DNA from: Paradevosia shaoguanensis
GTDB lineage: Bacteria > Pseudomonadota > Alphaproteobacteria > Rhizobiales > Devosiaceae
Assembly (NCBI RefSeq): GCF_016801025.1
Contig: NZ_CP068983.1
Coordinates: 4,332,501-4,396,500 of the forward strand
Length of the DNA stretch: 64,000 bases
Direction of reading: 5' to 3'
Under the pieces are notes generated by a model that was not told the origin of the DNA, did no database searches, and saw only the letters and a list, made by a program, of their open reading frames with translations. A program made the translations under genes and the position numbers. Positions 1 through 35,957 of the stretch are shown here, piece after piece; the first letter of the stretch is position 1, and the number at the start of each line of letters is the position of its first letter.

Positions 1-999
1 TCCAAGTGTCGCTTTCACGGAGACCCATCCGTCATCAATGAAGGCCTTGAGAGTTGCTTCTCCAGGCGCCATCGGGTCTGCGCCATCGCGGACAAGCTTG
101 TTTATGAAGCCCTCAATGACCTCATCAGGCCTTGACTGACGATCTCGAAAAGATCGCGCCACCGAGCGCAGCACTTCCCCCTCTGCTCTGGTGAAGCTTC
201 GGACCCAACGGGCATGCGGCGTCGGCCTTGTCCTCGCCCAGGTCACGGATACTTCGAATCCATCACCGGTCTGGCTTAGGGAAGCTGCGGCGTCACAGAG
301 GTTCGCGCTAACTCCCAAATGCACGGACCTGGCAAACACGCCGTCCGGTCCGCCTGACAATAGACTCTCAACACCTGACGCCGCCGCATCAAGGCCTGTC
401 GTTAGGCGCCGTGTAACTCTGCGTTCGTAGGGCTCGTCCTGGAAGTTAGGCCAAAACACAGCTTGTTCAGGTTGAAGCTGAGGCGGAACCGGGGCCAAAA
501 GGGCAACGACAAAGCTCCCCTGCTCCGTTTGACCAAGCCGAACACGACTTAAGAAGTCGTCAGCTTGCTTAACTTTACCTGCTCGGTAAGTTCGCTGTGG
601 GCTCCAGGCAGCACATGCCGCGGACAGCATCAAATCACGAGAGTTACGAACTAATTCAACACCATCATCTACTGAAACCGAGCCATCACTGTCGGCTTCA
701 GCTATTCGAACCCGAACTACGTCTTTGTCAGCAGAAACCAGATCTCTATATACCTGAAGCTCGTCACGGCCCTCGTGCCTCGCGATGCGCCAAATTAGTT
801 CACCAATCACGGAGGCGTAGTCGCCTAGCGCCTCTGTCACGGGGACGACCAACTCATCCGCGAGGGGCTTGTTGGCGTAAACGACGGAATGCTCACCGTA
901 GGCCTCCAAGTTGGCCCAACCTTCTGAAATCAGATACGCCGCCACGGCGGCCGGAGAGACCGCTCTGAGTGCCTCGGCGTCGGTAATGCGTGCCTTCAT
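1..999 (-). CDS. Unrecognised protein, second gene of a coupled pair (3' end outside window)
   Basis: The reading frame is open from ATG at 999 to the left edge, giving at least 333 residues. The start codon overlaps the stop of the DUF4365-like gene (shared ATGA), so the two are probably translationally coupled. The sequence looks soluble, with no membrane segment or signal peptide. The most motif-like stretch is RVRLGQTEQGSFVVALL at residues 152-168. I do not recognise the family with certainty. It sits where the tape-measure gene would be expected in a siphovirus tail operon but does not resemble a tape measure, so it is probably cargo. A role with the upstream nuclease-like protein is inference only. 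Confidence 0.8.
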   Translation of the reverse strand, partial: MKARITDAEALRAVSPAAVAAYLISEGWANLEAYGEHSVVYANKPLADELVVPVTEALGDYASVIGELIWRIARHEGRDELQVYRDLVSADKDVVRVRIAEADSDGSVSVDDGVELVRNSRDLMLSAACAAWSPQRTYRAGKVKQADDFLSRVRLGQTEQGSFVVALLAPVPPQLQPEQAVFWPNFQDEPYERRVTRRLTTGLDAAASGVESLLSGGPDGVFARSVHLGVSANLCDAAASLSQTGDGFEVSVTWARTRPTPHARWVRSFTRAEGEVLRSVARSFRDRQSRPDEVIEGFINKLVRDGADPMAPGEATLKAFIDDGWVSVKATLG

Positions 1000-1508
1000 T
1001 CTATCTTCCCCAGCCGCGACATCTCCATCAAGCGGCGCAGAGCGGGAACGTCAAAAACGTTCTGTCTTGGGATCGGCACACTTACAGTTGCCCTATTTTC
1101 TGTGGGTTCCGCGTCGCGCAATGACACCCAGTACGCACAACGTTGGATTACTAACTGTTCTGAGCTGGCCGTTAGCCATTTTTCTGGTTCCGATGGGAGA
1201 TCCAACACCACAAGAATCCGTGGCGTCTGAGTTGCCACTCGCAGGTCTTCATAGTTTTTCAGTTTGACCGGATACGAAAAGTGCACCTCTGACCCCTTGA
1301 GGTTGACGGTCGACTTAAGCTGGATGTCCAGCTTGGGGCGCATTTGCCCACCTGCCCAAATCTGCAGATCGATGCTATCGCGGTCAGGCTGAGGCGCCTC
1401 GCTGCAATTGTACCCGGCATGGGCGGCGATAGCATAGACGTAGGCTATCGAAAGAGCGCTCTCGACGTCCGTTTGGTGCAGTAAAGCATCCCCATCAAGC
1501 AACTTCAT
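996..1508 (-). CDS. DUF4365-like protein, candidate PD-(D/E)XK-type nuclease
   Basis: A 170-residue soluble protein. The opening helix (residues 14-35) is followed by an acidic strand DSIDLQI (44-50) and then LDIQLKST (60-67). This acid plus Q-x-K arrangement is typical of DUF4365 proteins and resembles a PD-(D/E)XK nuclease core. I chose ATG 1508, preceded by GGGGG; a TTG at 1517 is the alternative. The gene has its own likely promoter (1530-1557) and shares ATGA with the next gene. It interrupts the tail operon between the tail chaperones and the rest of the tail genes. Nuclease activity and a defence role are inferred from family and context. Confidence 0.75.
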   Translation of the reverse strand: MKLLDGDALLHQTDVESALSIAYVYAIAAHAGYNCSEAPQPDRDSIDLQIWAGGQMRPKLDIQLKSTVNLKGSEVHFSYPVKLKNYEDLRVATQTPRILVVLDLPSEPEKWLTASSEQLVIQRCAYWVSLRDAEPTENRATVSVPIPRQNVFDVPALRRLMEMSRLGKIE

Positions 1509-1529
1509 GACCCCCAAAACTCACTAGAG

Positions 1530-1557
1530 ATCATATTGAGGATTCGTTGATAAACAA
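1530..1557 (-). promoter_or_regulatory. Candidate sigma-70 promoter of the DUF4365 pair
   Basis: On the minus strand, TTGTTT (1557-1552) and TATGAT (1535-1530) are separated by 16 bases, about 20 bases before the start at 1508. The gap is AT-rich compared with its surroundings. A private promoter would let the pair be expressed in the lysogen when the tail operon is silent. Confidence 0.5.
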
Positions 1558-1606
1558 TCCTATGGCTTCTTGGAATCTGGCTCAGTACTTCACACTCCCA
1601 CTTGCG

Positions 1607-2319
1607 CTAAGAAACGCCATCGTGGTTCGCTGAGCCGGCAACGGCCAAGAACGAGCCATCCATATCCATCAGAATGGCCGCCTCTTCGGGCCGGACAACA
1701 TGCCCGGTCCGTTGCACCCATGCCATCATCTCGGTGTTGGTCACGGGATTGGGGCCATTGAACCCAGCTGGTTGTGACCGGCGCAGATCCCAGAACCACT
1801 CCCAGAGGTACTCCCCAACCGGCGGGACCTCCACCGGGGGGCTTTCGTGGCCGAAACGCGCATTTCGTTCCCTGCGCGTTTCGCCGTCTTTGTCGGGGAA
1901 GTCATAGCGGACGAGGACGCGGACGGCCTCGGCCAGTTCCTCCCCTATTTCTGAAAAAAAGCGGCTTCATCCGTCAGGGCAGCGTCGATCTGCTGGGCGA
2001 GCCACGGGGCATCGGTCAGAACGATCTTAAGGTTGCCCGAGGTGAAGTCCAGCTTCTTGCCCTTCCAATCGGACTCCCCGCCCCACTCCCAGCCGACGAC
2101 GGCGGCCATAAGGAGTTCGTTTCCGTTCTCCTCGATCGTCTCGGCTGTAGTGGTCTTGTTGCGGGCGCGCAGAGCCTTGTTCTGGAGCCGGCGACGGACG
2201 GCGGCCACCCGCTCATCCTGCAGCGACACGGCCTTGATGACGAGCCCGGTCGGCTCTCCCGTCCCCGGATGGGTGATCGGAATGTCGATGGTGTCAGGCT
2301 TGATGGTCGAGAGGTCCAT
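1607..2319 (-). CDS. Tail assembly chaperone GT, product of -1 frameshifting
   Basis: Residues 1-122 are read in the G frame; a -1 slip on the T7 run at 1960-1954 then continues 115 more residues to a TAG at 1607-1609, giving about 237 residues. The -1 frame is open without a stop from the slippery site through position 1834. The extension contains EYLWEWFWDLRRS and ends in a helix rich in M, D and A, the usual look of the T part of siphovirus tail chaperones. In lambda, G and GT coat the tape measure during tail assembly. Gene order (tail tube, then chaperones) fits. The downstream frame has only a GTG candidate start at 1834, so independent translation is less likely. Confidence 0.8.
1945..2319 (-). 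CDS. Tail assembly chaperone G
   Basis: A 124-residue acidic protein that terminates two codons after the slippery run (…AAFFQK-stop). It is the 0-frame product of the G/GT pair. It follows the tail tube gene by 9 bases, as in many siphophages. Helical segments around residues 35-75 carry no catalytic motif. Excess of G over GT is expected because frameshifting is partial. The assignment rests on position, size and the slippery site; sequence alone would only support a hypothetical protein. Confidence 0.75.
   Translation of the reverse strand: MDLSTIKPDTIDIPITHPGTGEPTGLVIKAVSLQDERVAAVRRRLQNKALRARNKTTTAETIEENGNELLMAAVVGWEWGGESDWKGKKLDFTSGNLKIVLTDAPWLAQQIDAALTDEAAFFQK
1954..1960 (-). promoter_or_regulatory. 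-1 ribosomal frameshift slippery heptamer
   Basis: The mRNA reads GC T-TTT-TTT CAG AAA TAG, an X-XXY-YYZ heptamer in the correct phase for simultaneous -1 slippage, six bases before the 0-frame stop. After the slip the -1 frame is open for 115 codons. No strong downstream stem-loop was worked out. Confidence 0.8.
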
Positions 2320-2328
2320 GTGCGCTCC

Positions 2329-3072
2329 TTACGCGGCGATGACGTCGGCGGTAGCGCCGCTGGTCTTCGAGAGATTGCCGGCCGAGTTCGTGGCGGTCAC
2401 AGCGACCGAGATGTCGGCGCCCACGTCTCCGACGACCGGCACATAGGTTTTGCCGCTGGCCCCCGCGATATTGGTGCCCGCCTTCTTCCACCGGTAGGCA
2501 AAGGACGGCTCGCCGGTCCACTCACCGGACAGAGCAGTGAGCACCTGCCCAACCTGGGCGATCCCGGCGATGGCCGGCAGGAGCGTATTGGTCGGCGCAA
2601 CGATGGACTGCGGGTCAACGACGATTTCGCGCTGATTGAGCGCCATCGTGAAGACTTCAAGGATGAAGTCCTCGTTCCGGCCATTGGGGCGCGTCGGCCC
2701 GGTCACGAGGCCGCGGTTGTAGTAGACCGAGTTGGTGTGGTCCGCGTCCGGGGCGTCCTTGTCCTCGAACTTGAACGCATAGTTGAAATTGGTCTTGGCC
2801 GCAGCGCGCAGCGCGACCTGGCCGGGATCGGTCGGGTTGCGGGCGCATTCGATCGTCGGATCGCCAGCGTTCGAGATGCCCTTCCCCTTCTGAGTCACAT
2901 CCGTGGCCAGTTCGTCATAGGAAACGACATTGGTCTGCGTGCCGCTCTCGCCGATCGCGCCGACATTGCCGATCTCGATCCACGTCAGCGCCTCGAACGC
3001 TGCCTGATCGAGGACGTTCGGCTGCGGGGTAGTGCAGATGTAGGCCTTGCGGTCCTTGTTGGTCCGTGCCAT
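2329..3072 (-). CDS. Major tail tube protein with C-terminal Ig-like domain
   Basis: A 247-residue protein. Residues 1-165 have the layout of siphovirus tail tube subunits. Residues about 166-245 form a bacterial Ig-like domain (PAIAGIAQVGQVLTA... YRWKKAG... ISVAVTATNSAG), a common decoration on tail tubes that projects from the virion. The start at 3072 is preceded by a strong GGAGAG site. A terminator-like hairpin lies just upstream (3099-3118), so this abundant protein may be transcribed or processed apart from the connector genes. The gene is followed at 9 bases by the tail chaperone. Confidence 0.8.
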   Translation of the reverse strand: MARTNKDRKAYICTTPQPNVLDQAAFEALTWIEIGNVGAIGESGTQTNVVSYDELATDVTQKGKGISNAGDPTIECARNPTDPGQVALRAAAKTNFNYAFKFEDKDAPDADHTNSVYYNRGLVTGPTRPNGRNEDFILEVFTMALNQREIVVDPQSIVAPTNTLLPAIAGIAQVGQVLTALSGEWTGEPSFAYRWKKAGTNIAGASGKTYVPVVGDVGADISVAVTATNSAGNLSKTSGATADVIAA

Positions 3073-8134: not shown

Positions 8135-9013
8135 ATGTTGCTTGTATGGATAGTTTTGCCGCTGCTTGCTGCGGCGGTATGCGTAATTTGGATTTACTGG
8201 GCACACAGCTCTCTAGCTTTGATCACGCATTTCTCAGGGGCAAAAGACTGGAGCGAGGCCGGGCAGTGGGGCGACTCGTTTGGGGGGTTCAATGCACTCT
8301 TCGGCGCCCTCGGCTTCTCCGCCGTAATGGCGACGCTGCTTTTTCAGGCCATCTCACTGAACCGGCAACAGCGGGATTTGCATCGGCAAGCGTTCGAGAG
8401 CTCGTTTTTCGAGCAGTTGAGGCTGTTGCGAGAGGCGCGGAATGAGGTCAGATACCTCTTCAGCGCCGCCTATCGAAACGAAGTTCCTTCTTCAAATTCC
8501 TCACTCAGGGGCGAACAAACCGGTCTCAAGGCGTTCCGTGCCGCAGTGCTCGAAGCCAAGCACTGGATGGACCGCGATGCCAAGGCTGGTGAGAAACTCA
8601 CGGCAGAGGAGGTCGGAAGAATTTATCAGAAGCGTATCCATAGCCGCTTTGAAAGCACTTTCGGGACCTATTTTCGCTTATTGAATGCCGCATTGGCTCG
8701 CATCGACAACGACAAGATGCTCTCGAAGAGCCAGAAAATAACTTACGCGAACCTCCTACGAGGGCAGCTTTCGACGTTCGAAGCCGCTTTAGCAGGATAT
8801 AATGCGCTAGCCCCTTTCTCTGGGAATTTCAAACACTTGGTGATCGAGTTCCGTTTACTAAAATACATACGAACTGGCGCGACAAGGACACTTCTAAAGC
8901 AGTACTACCCGGAGAGCACTTTCATCTCTAGGCCGAAGCGCCGTGGCCTTTGGCCGCTCCAGAACAACCTGGTGAGCCAAGAAAACGACGTCGAAGCTGT
9001 TGATGAAGCCTAA
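8135..9013 (+). CDS. putAbiC-type membrane protein (putative phage abortive infection)
   Basis: 292 residues. Two membrane helices (about 2-22 and 53-74) frame the segment WSEAGQWGDSFGGFN; then comes RQAFESSFFEQLRLLRE, and later YFRLLNAALARID, TYANLLRGQLSTFE and FKHLVIEFRLLKYI. These blocks match the order seen in putative phage abortive infection proteins (putAbiC family). It starts ATG 8135 after GAGGG. It is on the + strand between MuF-side and scaffold genes, so it probably has its own promoter and acts in the lysogen. Superinfection exclusion or abortive infection is the inferred role. Confidence 0.75.
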   Translation: MLLVWIVLPLLAAAVCVIWIYWAHSSLALITHFSGAKDWSEAGQWGDSFGGFNALFGALGFSAVMATLLFQAISLNRQQRDLHRQAFESSFFEQLRLLREARNEVRYLFSAAYRNEVPSSNSSLRGEQTGLKAFRAAVLEAKHWMDRDAKAGEKLTAEEVGRIYQKRIHSRFESTFGTYFRLLNAALARIDNDKMLSKSQKITYANLLRGQLSTFEAALAGYNALAPFSGNFKHLVIEFRLLKYIRTGATRTLLKQYYPESTFISRPKRRGLWPLQNNLVSQENDVEAVDEA

Positions 9014-15884: not shown

Positions 15885-16466
15885 CTATGCTGCTTCGGGG
15901 ACCTCGTCAAGCTCCTCCACCCAGTCCGGAGGAAACTCCACCGGCGATAGCCGGCCGAACACGTTCAAGACGGCACTGATGGTGCCCCTGCCGCTGACGT
16001 TGACCACCTCGGCGGGGAACCCAGTGAAGGGCCCGCGCTTCGCCAGGACGTGGCTGCCCACCGGGAAGCGCAGCTTCGTCGTCTCCTTTTTCGTCCGACC
16101 GATCTCTTTGCGATGCAGCTTCCCTGCTCGAGTGTCATCGAACGCAAAGTTCTGCTCCGCGTCGCGAACGGCCAAAAGGGCATTGGTCTCGACTTGGTTG
16201 AGGGCCTGGGGCCGCCCCTCGGCGCCTAACACGCGCTCGACCCCTTCACAGGCCCGCAGGCGATACCATGCAACCGGTCCATCGACTTCCACGAAGAGGT
16301 AGCGCGGAAAGATGCGGAATTCCGTCTCGCGCCAAATCTTCTTCCTTTTGGAGAACTTCTCCACACGCCCCATCGGCGCATAAGCCGAGAAGCCAGCGCG
16401 GCGCAGATTGCGCCCCGCCTTCTCCTCGCACTTCACGTTCGTCAGAACAACGTACCATCTCGACAT
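15885..16466 (-). CDS. NusG-family transcription (anti)termination factor
   Basis: 193 residues from ATG 16466. The N-terminal domain (1-110) has RWYVVLTNVKCEEKAGRNLRRAGF and FPRYLFVEV, the NGN pattern; the C-terminal part (about 130-175) is a KOW-like module (FPVGSHVLAKRGPFTGFPAEV). Specialised NusG paralogues such as RfaH or LoaP promote read-through of terminators. It lies upstream of the structural genes, which contain two intrinsic terminator-like hairpins, so processive antitermination of the late operon is a reasonable inference. Confidence 0.8.
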   Translation of the reverse strand: MSRWYVVLTNVKCEEKAGRNLRRAGFSAYAPMGRVEKFSKRKKIWRETEFRIFPRYLFVEVDGPVAWYRLRACEGVERVLGAEGRPQALNQVETNALLAVRDAEQNFAFDDTRAGKLHRKEIGRTKKETTKLRFPVGSHVLAKRGPFTGFPAEVVNVSGRGTISAVLNVFGRLSPVEFPPDWVEELDEVPEAA

Positions 16467-16622
16467 GACTAAAACCCCCATGGGTGTTGAAACCAATGAG
16501 GCTGGGGCAGATCGAACTAAGGAACACCGAGGTTCTCGCTCAGTTTGCGCCGCCTATCAAGTCCATCCTGCTTTCGTTGCTCGCTTGTGCGCAGAAAGAG
16601 AGAGTGCGACAAAGGCATAGAA

Positions 16623-18041
16623 ATGCGGGCTCAGGACATGCGTAGTATCAGGCTGTTTCTTGCGTTATTTATCGCTGTTGTGATTGCGTTTGGTGGCGGC
16701 TCGGCTGTCGCCAGTTTTCAATCGAGCAAGACTTGGTTTGACCACCTCTCGATGGAAGACCGCCTTCTGCTGCAAGGCAAGCTTGTGTTGTTAGGCCTTT
16801 ACAGCGGCTTGATCGACGGAGAGTTCGGTGCTGGCACATTCCGAGCGCTCGAGACATTCCAGAAGCAGGAATTTGCATTCAGCGATGGGGTGTTGACACC
16901 ATCCCAGAGTGATTTGCTCGACAAGCAGGCCGCAGCGGTTTTTGGCGCCCTAGGCATGACGGACATCTTCGAGAGCGAGGCGGGCGTGGACATAGTTGTG
17001 CCCAAGGCCTTGTTGACTCGAGACATAAAGACACGGTTCGGGAAGCGCTTTACGTCTCCGGATGGTTCACTTTCCATGGAAACCATGCGCAGGGCATTGC
17101 CGGGTGCTGGCTTCTCCGCGGCATATGCAAGCGCCAAGGCACCTCGTCCGGGCTTGGTGGTCAAGTATTCCACCTACACCGAAAACCGCTTCGTGATTTC
17201 GGGGCTCGAGAACGGAAGCTTCTTCTATCTGATGACCTACAACACTGGCGACACCAGCGTTGGGTACCGCGTCACATGGACAAATCAGCTCGACAAAGTT
17301 GGTCCCGTTGTCGCTACGTTTGCTGCGTCGACGTTCTCCCCGAGCCATTCCCGAGAGACCTCTCCTGTTGCCGCTGGCGCGACCGAAACGCCCACCACGC
17401 CGGCGCAACCGGAGCCAGCCATCTACTCCGGATCCGGCTTCTTCTTCGCTCCCAGCGGAATGCTGGTGACCAACGCACACGTCGTAAACTCTTGCGCCAC
17501 TATTGAGGTACCCGGCTACGGCGAGGCCACCGTTCTCAAGGCAGACAAAGAGATTGATCTGGCTGCCCTGCAGCTAAAGTCCGGTCGGAGCCCAGCGTGG
17601 GCAACCATCAGGGAGAGCGCGCCGGTCCTGGGTGAAGACGTGATTATGCTCGGCTATCCCCTCGCCGACCTTCTGAATTCATCGCTTAACGTTGGAACCG
17701 GAATTGTATCGGCCGAAACGATGGCGAGTGGCGTTCGCGGCTGGTTTACAACCAACACCGGGATTCAGCCTGGAAACAGTGGCGGCCCGATACTTGACGG
17801 GTCAGGGCTGGTCGTAGGCGTCGCCGTCGCTAAGGTGAACGACAAGACGCTCATTGCCGAGGCAGGCACAGTCGCACCCAATGTTGGATTTGCCATTAGT
17901 TCGCGGGTGCTTTTGGACTTCCTCTCGATCTTCCAACATGGGGCCGAGCCGGGCGGGCAGAAGGACAAACAGCTGCATAGCACGAAGGACCTTGTCAGCG
18001 TGGCACGCCGTTACACAGTGCAAATTATCTGTCGCCAGTAG
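16623..18041 (+). CDS. Secreted trypsin-like serine protease with peptidoglycan-binding-like domain (moron)
   Basis: 472 residues from ATG 16623 (AAAGG upstream). A signal peptide ends near residue 30 (FGGGSAVASF). A peptidoglycan-binding-1-like module covers about 45-85 (LVLLGLYSGLIDGEFGAGT). A Pro/Thr linker (245-265) leads to an S1/Deg-type protease with His286 (TNAHVV), Asp312 (EIDLAAL) and Ser386 (GNSGGP). No PDZ domain. On the + strand between NusG and the replication gene, whose stop it overlaps by 17 bases. Likely a lysogen-expressed periplasmic or secreted enzyme; the substrate is unknown. Confidence 0.8.
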   Translation: MRAQDMRSIRLFLALFIAVVIAFGGGSAVASFQSSKTWFDHLSMEDRLLLQGKLVLLGLYSGLIDGEFGAGTFRALETFQKQEFAFSDGVLTPSQSDLLDKQAAAVFGALGMTDIFESEAGVDIVVPKALLTRDIKTRFGKRFTSPDGSLSMETMRRALPGAGFSAAYASAKAPRPGLVVKYSTYTENRFVISGLENGSFFYLMTYNTGDTSVGYRVTWTNQLDKVGPVVATFAASTFSPSHSRETSPVAAGATETPTTPAQPEPAIYSGSGFFFAPSGMLVTNAHVVNSCATIEVPGYGEATVLKADKEIDLAALQLKSGRSPAWATIRESAPVLGEDVIMLGYPLADLLNSSLNVGTGIVSAETMASGVRGWFTTNTGIQPGNSGGPILDGSGLVVGVAVAKVNDKTLIAEAGTVAPNVGFAISSRVLLDFLSIFQHGAEPGGQKDKQLHSTKDLVSVARRYTVQIICRQ

Positions 18042-22045: not shown

Positions 22046-23224
22046 CTAGACCCTCATCGGCATGATGACGCGGGTCATCGTCTCGTCCTCGTCCATCACG
22101 AGGAATGGGCTACTGGCATCGATTTGGCGGAGGGTGACCTTGCCGGTGCAGTGCTTGAGCACGTCGAGCAGATATGTCGCCTTCAAGCCGAAGTCCGCCT
22201 TTGCGCCCGGCCAGGTGGTCGATAGCACCACGGACGCGCTGCCATGGTCCGCGTTCTTGGCCTCAACCGCCAGGCGGCCATCGCGCTCGAAGAAGCGGAG
22301 CGCATGGGCCGAGAACTTGGAGAAGATGACGCTGACGCGGCGGAGCGCTGCCGTCACCTCAGGGAGGTCGAGCGCATAATCGAACCGCACATCGCTCGCC
22401 TTGGGCGTTACGCGGTCGATGTCCGGATACGTGCCGTCGATCAGCTTCGCCCGGATCACCAGGCCCGGCGCAACGAATTCAATCGCGGCACCGTCGGGGA
22501 CGCGCGCCACACTGTATGCCGTAACGTCCAAGCCGGCCGTGTGCTTTTCGAGCAGGCCGACAACCTTCAAGGGGATGATGCGGCGGGCTGATGACTGCCC
22601 CAGCGACTTGCCCTCATAGAGGTTGACGGCCAGACGGTGCCCGTCGGTCGCGGCGAAGCGGCGCCCGGTCGTCCCGATCTCCCAAAGCGCGCCGTTGATG
22701 TAGTAGCGAAGGCCATCTGTGCTGATGAACTGCGATACCTTCGCCAGCGACGCGGCGAGCATGCCGTTGGTGAAGCGCTCGATGGTCAGGCCGCGCTCGC
22801 CTGGCAAGCTCGGGAAAGCATCTGACGCGAGAACGACGAGATCAAAGGCGGCGCCATCATCGAAGCGCAGATCGAGGTTCTCATCGCCGCGGGGAGAGAT
22901 CGTCACATTGGACGAGCCGGCGACGCGGGCAATGTCGCCGAGCACCCTCGCATCGACGCAGCCGGACCACGCACCGCCCGCATCTTCCACGTCGACCGTG
23001 ATGATCACCTCGATTTCAAGGTCTGTGCCGCTGATGATCAGCGTCGTGCCTCGGATTTCGAGCTTCGCGCAGGAGAGGGTGGGATAGGCGTTTCGCCGCT
23101 CGGTGACGTAGTTCACCACCTGCAGCGCCTTGGCCAGCGCCCTACCCTCGACGGTTGCGAAGGGCTTGGCAGCATCCCGTAATTCAGAGCGAGCAACATC
23201 GTTCGTTGCGAAGGCAACGTTCAT
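22046..23224 (-). CDS. DNA polymerase III beta clamp homologue (phage-encoded)
   Basis: 392 residues, slightly longer than host DnaN proteins. The three-domain clamp pattern is seen from LAKALQVVNYVTERRNAYPTLS near residue 30, through FAATDGHRLAVN in the middle, to the conserved C-terminal RVIMPMRV. No polymerase subunit is encoded nearby, so it would load on host or phage replisomes. It sits in the replication/methylation gene set and is coupled to the small basic gene. Could recruit host polymerase or displace the host clamp. Confidence 0.85.
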   Translation of the reverse strand: MNVAFATNDVARSELRDAAKPFATVEGRALAKALQVVNYVTERRNAYPTLSCAKLEIRGTTLIISGTDLEIEVIITVDVEDAGGAWSGCVDARVLGDIARVAGSSNVTISPRGDENLDLRFDDGAAFDLVVLASDAFPSLPGERGLTIERFTNGMLAASLAKVSQFISTDGLRYYINGALWEIGTTGRRFAATDGHRLAVNLYEGKSLGQSSARRIIPLKVVGLLEKHTAGLDVTAYSVARVPDGAAIEFVAPGLVIRAKLIDGTYPDIDRVTPKASDVRFDYALDLPEVTAALRRVSVIFSKFSAHALRFFERDGRLAVEAKNADHGSASVVLSTTWPGAKADFGLKATYLLDVLKHCTGKVTLRQIDASSPFLVMDEDETMTRVIMPMRV

Positions 23225-34630: not shown

Positions 34631-34962
34631 GCGGGTTGCTCAAGCCGGCCCAAGCTGCCGATGCGCTCGGAATATCTGACCGCCAGCTCCGAGATTTGAC
34701 GGACGATGGCTCTCTGCCCTTTATCAATGTCGGCAGGGGTGAGAAGCGCCTTTCACGCCGATACGATCCGAACGATATTGAGGCGTTCAAGGTCGCCCGC
34801 AGGAGAGTAGAATGTCCGTCTACAAGCGCAACGGCGTCGGCACCTATCGCTACGACTTCGAGGTCGGTGGTAAGCGATTTGTCGGAGATACGGGCGAGAC
34901 TGACAAGCGCAAAGCCGAAGCAGCTCAAAAGCGCGAGCGGGAGAAAGCCCGAGATCGCCTGA
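34627..34962 (+). CDS. Excisionase-like HTH protein
   Basis: 111 residues from ATG 34627. LLKPAQAADALGISDRQLRD and LPFINVGRGEKRLSRRYDP are a MerR/excisionase-type winged helix (residues 4-55). The last 50 residues are read from the integrase region in another frame (151-base overlap) and are Ser/Ala/Pro-rich. Adjacent to the integrase, so it is a good recombination directionality factor candidate. Confidence 0.7.
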   Translation: MSGLLKPAQAADALGISDRQLRDLTDDGSLPFINVGRGEKRLSRRYDPNDIEAFKVARRRVECPSTSATASAPIATTSRSVVSDLSEIRARLTSAKPKQLKSASGRKPEIA

Positions 34963-35957
34963 GGGCCGCTGCCGACAAATTCAGCGCTAATATGACCTTC
35001 GGCGCTGCTTGCGTGCGCTACATGGAGGAAGTTGGCGAGCACCATAAGAACGCTCTGACAACCCTGTCCAATCTCGAATGGCTCCAGGCTCAACTTGGAG
35101 CCAAGACGTTGGTCTCCAACATAGACGACAACAGGGTCTCGTTCGTTGTCGCAAAGCGCCGCCGTGAGTTCCGCAAGGTCGGAAACGATCAGACGCCGAA
35201 GACACTCGTCAGCAACGCCACTGTCAACCGGACCTGCACCGAGCAGCTGCGCAAGGTGTTGCGGCGTGCCGAAACGAAGTGGGGATGCGCGGTCGGGGAA
35301 ATAGATTGGGCTGGCCACATGCTGCCAGAACCGAAAGAGCGCGTTCGCGAAGCTTCAGTCGAAGAGGAAGGTCTGGTTATGGACCAACTGGACCGAGGCT
35401 ATGATGATGGGGTGTTGTTCGCCGTGCTTACAGGATGCCGTCGCATGGAAATCGTTGGTCTAACATGGCAGTCCGTTGATTTCTTCAACCGCGTGTTCAC
35501 TGTGATCGGAAAGGGCGAGAAAAGCCGCACGGTGCCCATGAGCAATGCGGTGTTCGACTTGCTCTGGTCTATCAAGGACAACGATCCGCAATGGGTTTTT
35601 ACCTATGTGGCGGCGCGAACGGACAAGCGAAAGGGCATAGTCCGGGGCATTAGGTATCCGATGACCGACGCTGGGCTCCGAACAGCGGCCAGGCGAGCAG
35701 TCAGTGGGGCTGGCATCAAGAACCTGCGGTTCCATGATCTGCGCCACACGGCCGCGACACGTATTCTGAGGAAGTCAAATCTCAGGGTCGTGCAGAACCT
35801 GCTCGGGCACGCCGAGCCATCGACCACGGCGAAATATGCTCATGCTATGGTTGAAGACATCCGCGCCGCCATGGATGCAGCAGGCCCCGCCACAATCCCC
35901 GCCGACGAGCTGGCTTTTCGTATTAACTCACTGACGAAGCGCGGGAAATCGGGTTAA
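34812..35957 (+). CDS. int: Tyrosine integrase
   Basis: 381 residues. N-terminal Arm-binding-like domain (SVYKRNGVGTYRYDFEVGGK), SAM-like core-binding domain (80-160), and catalytic domain with Arg in TGCRRMEI, HDLRHTAATR (H-x-x-R), GHAEPSTTAKYAH with the nucleophile Tyr and the second His. All catalytic residues are present. It ends 8 bases before the tRNA-Pro fragment, the expected place for a phage integrase at attR. Confidence 0.92.
   Translation: MSVYKRNGVGTYRYDFEVGGKRFVGDTGETDKRKAEAAQKREREKARDRLRAAADKFSANMTFGAACVRYMEEVGEHHKNALTTLSNLEWLQAQLGAKTLVSNIDDNRVSFVVAKRRREFRKVGNDQTPKTLVSNATVNRTCTEQLRKVLRRAETKWGCAVGEIDWAGHMLPEPKERVREASVEEEGLVMDQLDRGYDDGVLFAVLTGCRRMEIVGLTWQSVDFFNRVFTVIGKGEKSRTVPMSNAVFDLLWSIKDNDPQWVFTYVAARTDKRKGIVRGIRYPMTDAGLRTAARRAVSGAGIKNLRFHDLRHTAATRILRKSNLRVVQNLLGHAEPSTTAKYAHAMVEDIRAAMDAAGPATIPADELAFRINSLTKRGKSG

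What the first reader, a model, noticed from the sequence alone, without database searches (positions are those of the whole stretch)
1..1557. Coupled DUF4365-like nuclease plus unknown large protein as prophage cargo
The tail operon is interrupted by a pair with its own promoter (1530-1557) and an ATGA overlap. The first protein has an acid plus Q-x-K core like PD-(D/E)XK folds; the second (at least 333 residues, cut by the edge) has no known domain. A self-contained two-gene unit at a position used for phage cargo is the profile of an undescribed defence system. The pairing, promoter and overlap are seen; nuclease and defence roles are inferred.
Basis: partly seen in the sequence, partly recalled or inferred. 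Interest (0 to 1): 0.8.

Follow-up and report, generated by a model that had tools for sequence, protein, structure and literature searches.

The report
Prophage cargo: nuclease plus sensor pair
A virus hidden in a bacterial chromosome carries a two-gene unit, a DNA-cutting enzyme and a likely sensor for it, that belongs to an already catalogued but untested family of candidate anti-virus systems found across many bacteria.

Summary
The pair is real and its two genes are strongly linked. Gene A (window 996-1508, minus; 170 aa) is a DUF4365 nuclease. Its model best matches the DREN nuclease of SPARDA, and it keeps the catalytic D-Q-x-K residues. Gene B (window <1-999, minus; 381 aa complete) has an N-terminal HicA-like domain, an unassigned middle and a C-terminal OB fold. 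In 77 of 102 relatives, A's stop overlaps B's start by 1 or 4 nt. The pair is cargo: two relatives (86% DNA identity) lack it at this site, it is AT-rich, and a 39-nt direct repeat flanks it.

It is not undescribed. PADLOC lists both proteins as candidate PDC-M02 (A 3e-60, B 2e-117). No paper that I could search names PDC-M02.

Two features look new. In 15 of 80 genome relatives the locus (A-B in 11, B alone in 4) lies between hsdS and hsdR of a type I restriction locus, the kind in which PrrC is embedded. Cyanobacterial plasmids carry a short B with only the N-domain and OB fold, which points to the N-domain as docking part.

Most likely mechanism: B senses infection through its OB and middle parts and releases A to degrade DNA. 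Nothing was tested at the bench.

The parts
996..1508 (-). Gene A: DUF4365/DREN-type PD-(D/E)XK nuclease, 170 aa (PDC-M02A); catalytic residues D47, Q63, K65, with D42 also nearly invariant
1..999 (-). Gene B (PDC-M02B), first 333 of 381 residues; the gene ends 147 nt beyond the window (L002:17854). HicA-like N-domain, unassigned middle, OB fold (partly outside the window)
996..999 (-). ATGA overlap of A stop and B start (translational coupling inferred)
   Evidence: conserved as 4-nt or 1-nt overlap in 77 of 102 relatives
1530..1557 (-). promoter-like TTGTTT-16-TATGAT upstream of A; weak, not above chance in the scan
1597..1635 (.). right copy of a 39-nt direct repeat (36 of 39) that flanks the cargo; the left copy is the 3' end of the bPH_2 gene at L002:17682-17720 (outside the window)
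1945..2319 (-). tail assembly chaperone-like gene, upstream neighbour in the interrupted tail operon (role recalled from position; no Pfam hit)
2329..3072 (-). tail tube protein (Phage_tail_3 E 4e-4, below the curated cut-off); used to find relatives without the pair

Best explanation
The pair is a two-component nuclease defence module (PADLOC candidate PDC-M02) carried as cargo by a temperate phage. A is a DREN-type PD-(D/E)XK nuclease. B is its probably non-enzymatic partner: the N-terminal HicA-like domain docks on and controls A, and the OB fold with the middle domain reads an infection signal, most likely single-stranded or otherwise abnormal nucleic acid. Without the signal B keeps A inactive or A is idle as a monomer, as isolated DREN is. 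With the signal B brings A molecules together and A cuts DNA with little specificity, so the infected lysogen dies or stalls and the superinfecting phage is not propagated. Shown by computation here: folds, catalytic residues, gene overlap, co-inheritance, cargo status, neighbourhood. Inferred: docking role of the N-domain, ligand of the OB fold, activation by assembly, lack of specificity, anti-phage effect.
For: A: DUF4365; model pLDDT 94, best PDB matches SPARDA DREN (Foldseek E 8.5e-7; VIA Z 14.5, 139 residues, rmsd 3.1), then Hjc resolvases; D42, D47, Q63 and K65 invariant in 47 of 47 rows and kept in 71, 72, 71 and 71 of 72. In NbaSPARDA the catalytic residues are D41, Q60, K62 and isolated DREN has undetectable activity (PMC12205087, passages); in TmuRE Q62 and K64 are the predicted active-site pair, and the Q62A/K64A double mutant served as the inactive form (PMC10810196, passages). 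B: OB fold at 289-378; no enzyme-like set among the conserved columns listed (my reading). Partnership: overlap in 77 of 102, r = 0.84, the 6 A places found in 385 genomes all lie next to B (at most 9 candidates a genome were scored). Modularity: 6 of 6 cyanobacterial short partners read are N-domain plus OB only. Cargo: site without the pair and repeat, low GC. Defence context: HsdR relative in 21 of 80 loci; Abi, DUF262/GmrSD and TA neighbours; a second defence-type cargo, putAbiC, in the same prophage.
Against: No activity data. PADLOC candidates are unproven, and PDC-M63AB showed no defence activity in the one model system where it was tested (PMC12409345, passages). The OB matches are modest (Foldseek E 2.4e-3 at best, Z about 8; SilF, a metal-binding protein by its title, tops the VIA list at 10.5) and OB folds bind many ligands, including proteins. 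The HicA-like match is one PDB row (Z 8.4). B is intact where A is partial or not found in 24 of 80 genome loci (one of them cut by a contig edge), against 2 of 80 the other way, so B may have a role without A; or the search by B biased the sample. Two of the six cyanobacterial short B genes have no A in front of them.
Confidence: 0.6

Rival explanations
1. Direct restriction: B recognises a feature of foreign DNA (sequence, modification or replication structure) and delivers A to cut that DNA, and the infected cell survives, like a type IV restriction enzyme.
For: A also resembles EcoRV, Hjc and restriction enzymes. Relatives sit with restriction genes. In PMC9519451 (section 7 read), 7 of 11 new systems with putative DNA-binding or cleaving parts gave direct immunity.
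Against: The closest structural relative, DREN, is a collateral nuclease. No recognisable modification reader was found in B by Pfam, although the middle domain was not tested alone by structure.
Confidence: 0.2
2. Toxin-antitoxin or addiction module: A is a toxic nuclease, B its antitoxin, and the pair stabilises prophages and plasmids.
For: Present on plasmids of about 55 kb beside ParA and integrase genes and in phages. A is partial or not found while B is intact in 24 of 80 loci, one of them at a contig edge.
Against: B is large with an OB fold and a further domain. The position between hsdS and hsdR and beside other defence genes fits defence better. The excess of broken A may come from searching with B.
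Confidence: 0.15
3. Phage recombination or packaging module: a Hjc-like resolvase with an SSB-like partner used in the phage's own DNA metabolism.
For: Foldseek and VIA rank Hjc resolvases second; the OB fold resembles SSB and PriB; it lies in a late phage operon.
Against: Absent from 86%-identical relatives of the same phage; found in many bacterial genomes and near restriction genes; best match is DREN.
Confidence: 0.04
4. Tail component or tail-fibre accessory, as its position alone might suggest.
For: Lies between tail chaperone and tape measure.
Against: Missing from the same site in two relatives, non-phage contexts, nuclease fold.
Confidence: 0.01

Closest known systems
PADLOC-DB PDC-M02 (PDC-M02A + PDC-M02B), an unpublished phage defence candidate
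   Same: Both proteins hit the profiles strongly (A 3.1e-60, B 1.7e-117 with the 333 aa in the window) and are adjacent in the same order.
   Different: PDC-M02 has no described mechanism or test in the papers I could search. The window's pair is a plain member; I found no description of the short-B form of cyanobacterial plasmids or of the hsd-nested form, but searched only for the names given.
SPARDA (short pAgo with DREN/DUF4365-APAZ)
   Same: Same nuclease domain fold and catalytic residues; two-gene operon with a nuclease and a second protein.
   Different: A ends after the nuclease domain (170 aa, no APAZ). B is not an Argonaute: no Pfam match and a different fold.
PrrC in the EcoprrI type I restriction operon
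   Same: A killing nuclease embedded in a type I restriction operon (PMC3874165, passage); here 15 of 80 relatives have hsdS upstream and hsdR downstream.
   Different: PrrC is a single anticodon nuclease. The window's genome has no HSDR_N match, so the window's copy is not of this form. That PrrC lies exactly between hsdS and hsdR is recalled.
DUF6575 proteins
   Same: A DUF6575 phage protein is the second best BFVD structural match of B (E 2.7e-7). DUF6575 occurs in an experimentally found E. coli defence system (PMC9519451, passages and section 7).
   Different: TM-score only 0.31 and no Pfam match of B to DUF6575, so this is a lead, not membership.

Membership tests
PDC-M02 (PADLOC candidate system) | A matches PDC-M02A profiles | tested here: met
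   E 3.1e-60
PDC-M02 (PADLOC candidate system) | B matches PDC-M02B profiles | tested here: met
   E 1.7e-117 with the truncated B, residues 1-332 on profile 1-332 of 380
PDC-M02 (PADLOC candidate system) | the two genes adjacent on one strand | tested here: met
   ATGA overlap at 996-999; that PADLOC requires adjacency is inferred
PDC-M02 (PADLOC candidate system) | anti-phage activity | not testable with these tools
   no experiment; none found in print for PDC-M02
SPARDA | DREN/DUF4365 nuclease domain with catalytic D, Q, K | tested here: met
SPARDA | APAZ domain fused to the nuclease | tested here: not met
   A is 170 aa and aligns only to about residues 3-150 of the 387-423 aa SPARDA chains
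SPARDA | short Argonaute (MID-PIWI) gene in the operon | tested here: not met
   B has no Piwi or other Pfam match over cut-off; both flanking genes belong to the phage
Restriction-operon guard (PrrC-like position) | nested between hsdS and hsdR | tested here: not met
   no HSDR_N match in the window's genome; met in 15 of 80 genome relatives
PD-(D/E)XK nuclease superfamily | core fold and catalytic residues | tested here: met
Toxin-antitoxin system | toxicity of A and neutralisation by B | not testable with these tools
   only indirect signs
HicA toxin | conserved catalytic His in the HicA-like domain (recalled) | tested here: inconclusive
   the aligned position is His in 28 of 65 rows, so it is not conserved in the family; the window's own B does have His there. 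Fold match to one PDB chain, 1whz, Z 8.4; that 1whz is a HicA-type fold is recalled

The most novel reading that the evidence does not exclude
PDC-M02 is a modular guard. The HicA-like N-domain of B is a general docking and control module for DREN nucleases, and the rest of B is an exchangeable sensor: middle plus OB in most bacteria, OB alone in cyanobacterial plasmids, another tail in Azospirillum. Where the pair is built into type I restriction loci it would watch the restriction enzyme itself, as PrrC watches EcoprrI, and unleash DREN when a phage disables restriction. Mobile copies such as this prophage's would use the OB sensor alone. I know of no other system in which one nuclease partner serves both as a stand-alone sensor and as a restriction guard (recall, not searched).
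Probability: 0.2. Interest if true: 0.75.

Novelty: new member of a known kind. Interest (0 to 1): 0.5.

Why it matters
It turns an entry of a candidate list into a concrete hypothesis: which residues should kill activity (D47, Q63, K65 of A), which part of B should bind A (N-domain), and which part should sense (OB, middle). DREN nucleases are known from short Argonaute systems; a widespread Argonaute-free pair would show that the same effector is driven by an unrelated sensor. The form nested in restriction loci, found in several distant phyla, suggests a second layer of defence behind restriction. For the prophage it is one of two defence-type cargo genes set in structural operons, the other being putAbiC.

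Tried and rejected
Close-relative scans with B as a single protein found nothing in genome contigs, viral contigs or phages; the alignment query did. A tail role was rejected. Membership in SPARDA was rejected (no APAZ, no Argonaute). A HicA-type RNase role for B is unlikely but not excluded: the His is not conserved in the family (28 of 65 rows), yet the window's B has it. Sequence search of B against the PDB gave only a chance-like hit (thymidylate synthase, E 1.9); A gave EcoRV at E 0.038. The DUF6575 link could not be tested: only two weak genome hits. A reverse viral scan with the A alignment was impossible, so the excess of broken A over broken B (24 against 2 of 80 genome loci, one of the 24 at a contig edge) keeps its search bias; some 'partial' A genes may be divergent rather than broken. 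The genome scan kept the best 80 of 148 relatives. In the Fisher test I dropped L053 (contig edge). HsdR counts use one reference protein; L024's hit lies upstream and was not counted as downstream, and the hits in L027 (contig end) and L066 are short fragments. HsdS hits of the fused MNT-HsdS reference may be to the MNT part, so I count with the pure HsdS reference; in some loci other genes lie between hsdS, the pair and hsdR. The HsdR control is of the window's phylum while the loci are of many phyla. In the tree L025, L102, L103, L111 and L115 were dropped as near-duplicates or fragments, stops were masked, and the search was the quick one. In the neighbour scan I used 117 of 149 nearest neighbours: 23 were under 130 aa, and 9 others were left out as near-duplicates or to keep within the size limit.

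Full report
What is there. The window lies in a 4.63-Mb single-contig genome at 4332501-4396500. One genome of the same class is Tistrella mobilis by identical coordinates of its hit, so the host is an alphaproteobacterium (inferred). In the genome B ends 147 nt further left and has 381 aa. The prophage continues on both sides: integrase at window 34812-35957 (PF00589), terminase-to-tail genes down to 1945, tape measure (PF06791) and later tail genes at L002:17200 and below. The pair sits between the tail chaperone and the tape measure, next to a small opposite-strand membrane gene (bPH_2; 280 phage records hold a relative).

Cargo status. A relative contig, L124, matches the phage at 86% DNA identity up to window 1656 and again from L002:17714, with no pair between. 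It holds a different small ORF there, 126 aa with a lipoprotein-like start by eye and no Pfam match. L125, from a similarly numbered sample and perhaps the same phage, shows the same junctions. The pair is flanked by the only direct repeat of 20 nt or more that the search found in that 3-kb stretch: 39 nt, 36 identical, which is the 3' end of the bPH_2 gene and a second copy at window 1597-1635. The pair has 56.3% GC; of 240 overlapping windows of equal length across the prophage, those over the pair included, 2 were as low.

What A is. Pfam DUF4365 at 8.7e-25. The AlphaFold model (47 rows, pLDDT 94) finds the DREN nuclease of SPARDA first (Foldseek 8.5e-7; VIA Z 14.5 over 139 residues, rmsd 3.1), then archaeal Hjc resolvases and EcoRV. 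D42, D47, Q63 and K65 are invariant in 47 of 47 aligned rows; in a larger set of 72 they are kept in 71, 72, 71 and 71. The catalytic residues of NbaSPARDA DREN are D41, Q60 and K62, its isolated DREN domain showed undetectable activity, and tetramerisation on a filament switches it on (PMC12205087, passages). In TmuRE, Q62 and K64 are the potential active-site residues, and the Q62A/K64A double mutant served as the inactive form (PMC10810196, passages).

What B is. No Pfam match over cut-off and no NCBIfam family. The model was made for a relative, L098, 62% identical to the window's part of B, with 65 rows and pLDDT 93.3. Its C-terminal 289-378 is an OB fold: SSB, PriB and RPA-type rows, VIA Z about 8 to 8.6 (SilF 10.5), best Foldseek E 2.4e-3. 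Residues 7-89 match one PDB chain, 1whz, at Z 8.4 over 70 residues; I recall that chain as a HicA-type fold. The His expected in HicA is present in 28 of 65 rows, the window's B among them, so it is not a family trait and an RNase role is unlikely. The middle 90-288 is unassigned. Against viral models the best match is a protein of Leptospira phage LE1 (E 1.8e-21). In LE1 the B gene (profile E 4.1e-50) follows an A gene (profile E 2.6e-37) directly. The next match is a DUF6575 protein (E 2.7e-7 but TM 0.31). DUF6575 occurs in a functionally selected E. coli system (PMC9519451, passages and section 7; the text I saw does not say which one).

The partnership. An alignment scan brought 80 genome loci (the best of 148) and 22 viral loci. 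A is found in 89 of 102, in one of them 2.6 kb away from the main part of an interrupted B. B's start overlaps A's stop by 4 nt in 50 and by 1 nt in 27 of 102 (genome 61 of 80, viral 16 of 22). Pairwise distances of A and B correlate at r = 0.84 over 71 intact pairs; 2000 permutations reached at most 0.25. In 385 genomes of the class, B has 7 places in 6 genomes, one of them a weak chance-like hit at 8.6e-4 and one a truncated copy. A has 6 places in 5 genomes, all next to a B place, one being a remnant at a contig edge; at most 9 candidates a genome were scored. On plasmids the full B is matched in 9 of 72,556 records.

Modularity of B. With A as query, 44 plasmid records match, 30 of them listed. 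Of eight loci opened from these A hits (seven plasmids) and (one phage), a full-length B follows A in Caballeronia, Pusillibacter and a Mycobacterium prophage. A short partner follows in three Nostoc plasmids and Azospirillum. One Bradyrhizobium record has a truncated A and no B annotated. The six cyanobacterial short partners read (three from these loci, three from N-domain hits) are the N-domain (profile 1-91) joined straight to the OB domain (296-378), 6 of 6, with the middle missing. Four of the six follow an A; in front of L156 and L157 no A was seen. Azospirillum keeps the N-domain with another tail. The N-domain used alone finds 22 plasmid records; comparing positions, 19 of 22 lie directly behind an A hit. 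The other three are L156, L157 and Pigmentibacter, where the preceding gene looks by eye like a transposase fragment. So the N-domain is the part most constantly tied to A, which is why I assign docking and control to it (inference). PADLOC profiles reach these short forms.

Neighbourhood. Of 117 nearest neighbours scanned (of 149), type I restriction genes lead: HSDR_N 8, Methylase_S 7, DUF1828 7, DUF1829 5, Polbeta nucleotidyltransferase 5, GmrSD_N 3 (PADLOC agrees). Over whole loci (mean 12.7 kb), an HsdR relative is in 21 of 80, and 20 of these lie downstream on the same strand, two as short fragments. 15 of 80 have HsdS upstream and HsdR downstream: 10 with an intact A, one with a partial A, four with B alone. 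In L027, L032 and L060 the hsdS stop overlaps A's start by 4 nt as well. As a control, only 91 of 150 whole genomes of the phylum have any HSDR_N match. On the B tree the restriction label needs at least 14 changes and the absence of A at least 8, so neither is one clade; but the label is also clustered, with 4 changes against a shuffled mean of 13.7 when set only against the viral rows, so the loci are not all independent. Loci without A carry HsdR more often (6 of 9 against 14 of 70, Fisher p 0.007, relatedness not corrected). Beside some lone B genes stands another protein, such as a Vsr/DUF559 nuclease (L026) or DUF1828/1829 (L030, L040, L041). The window's genome itself has no HSDR_N match. 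In the viral loci no HsdR was found.

Mechanism. The best-supported picture is a sensor-nuclease module. A is a DREN nuclease idle by itself; B docks with its N-domain, reads a nucleic-acid signal with its OB fold (and an unknown one with the middle), and brings A to activity, probably by assembly, so that DNA is degraded without much specificity and the phage is not propagated. Fold, catalytic residues and gene coupling are computed results; docking and everything after it is inferred from SPARDA and from the domain content. For the restriction-locus form a PrrC-like guard role is attractive: PrrC is embedded in a type I operon and is released when T4 infects (PMC3874165, passage).

Known or new. 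PADLOC-DB 2.0.0 holds this pair as PDC-M02. PDC systems are described as unpublished candidates from the PADLOC authors, and several coincide with named systems (PMC11811056, passages); one, PDC-M63AB, showed no activity when tested in one host (PMC12409345, passages). PDC-M02 is in no paper of the library I searched (exact terms). Of the 10 papers that name DUF4365, four are on Argonaute systems by title or abstract; I read passages of two of these and saw only the listing of the others. So the window's pair is a new member of a known candidate kind; the short B and the hsd nesting are the parts I have not seen described, with the limit that only open PMC papers were searchable and no search was made for those two features by themselves beyond.

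Noticed in passing
window 8135-9013 (+): Membrane protein with a putAbiC domain (PF16872, E 4.3e-15) on the opposite strand inside the head operon: a second defence-type cargo gene of the same prophage.
   Followed up: partly
L002:17682-17720 and window 1597-1635: 39-nt direct repeat (36 of 39) made of the 3' end of the bPH_2 gene flanks the pair, as if the cargo arrived by recombination in that gene end.
   Followed up: partly
L124:5259-5639 (-): At the site where the window has the pair, an 86%-identical phage carries a 126-aa ORF with a lipoprotein-like start; the site takes different cargo.
   Followed up: partly
L147, L148, L153, L155, L156, L157: Cyanobacterial plasmids encode a short B (175-180 aa) made of N-domain plus OB fold without the middle domain.
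   Followed up: yes
L027, L030, L032, L033, L037, L040, L041, L059, L060, L063, L067, L084, L085, L087, L088: A-B (11 loci, one with a partial A) or B alone (L030, L033, L040, L041) between hsdS and hsdR of type I restriction loci in several phyla.
   Followed up: partly
L030, L040, L041, L026: B without A stands beside DUF1828/DUF1829 proteins or a Vsr/DUF559 nuclease, as if the effector can be exchanged.
   Followed up: partly
L099:6504-8155: In another phage contig the pair lies between the terminase/methyltransferase genes and the capsid-protease gene, so head operons may be used as cargo sites too.
   Followed up: no
window 22046-23224 (-): Phage-encoded DNA polymerase III beta clamp, all three Pfam domains.
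   Followed up: no
window 16545-18041 (+): Peptidoglycan-binding plus trypsin-like protease protein on the opposite strand within the prophage.
   Followed up: no
window 15885-16496 (-): NusG-like protein encoded by the prophage (PF02357), possibly an antiterminator for the late operon.
   Followed up: no
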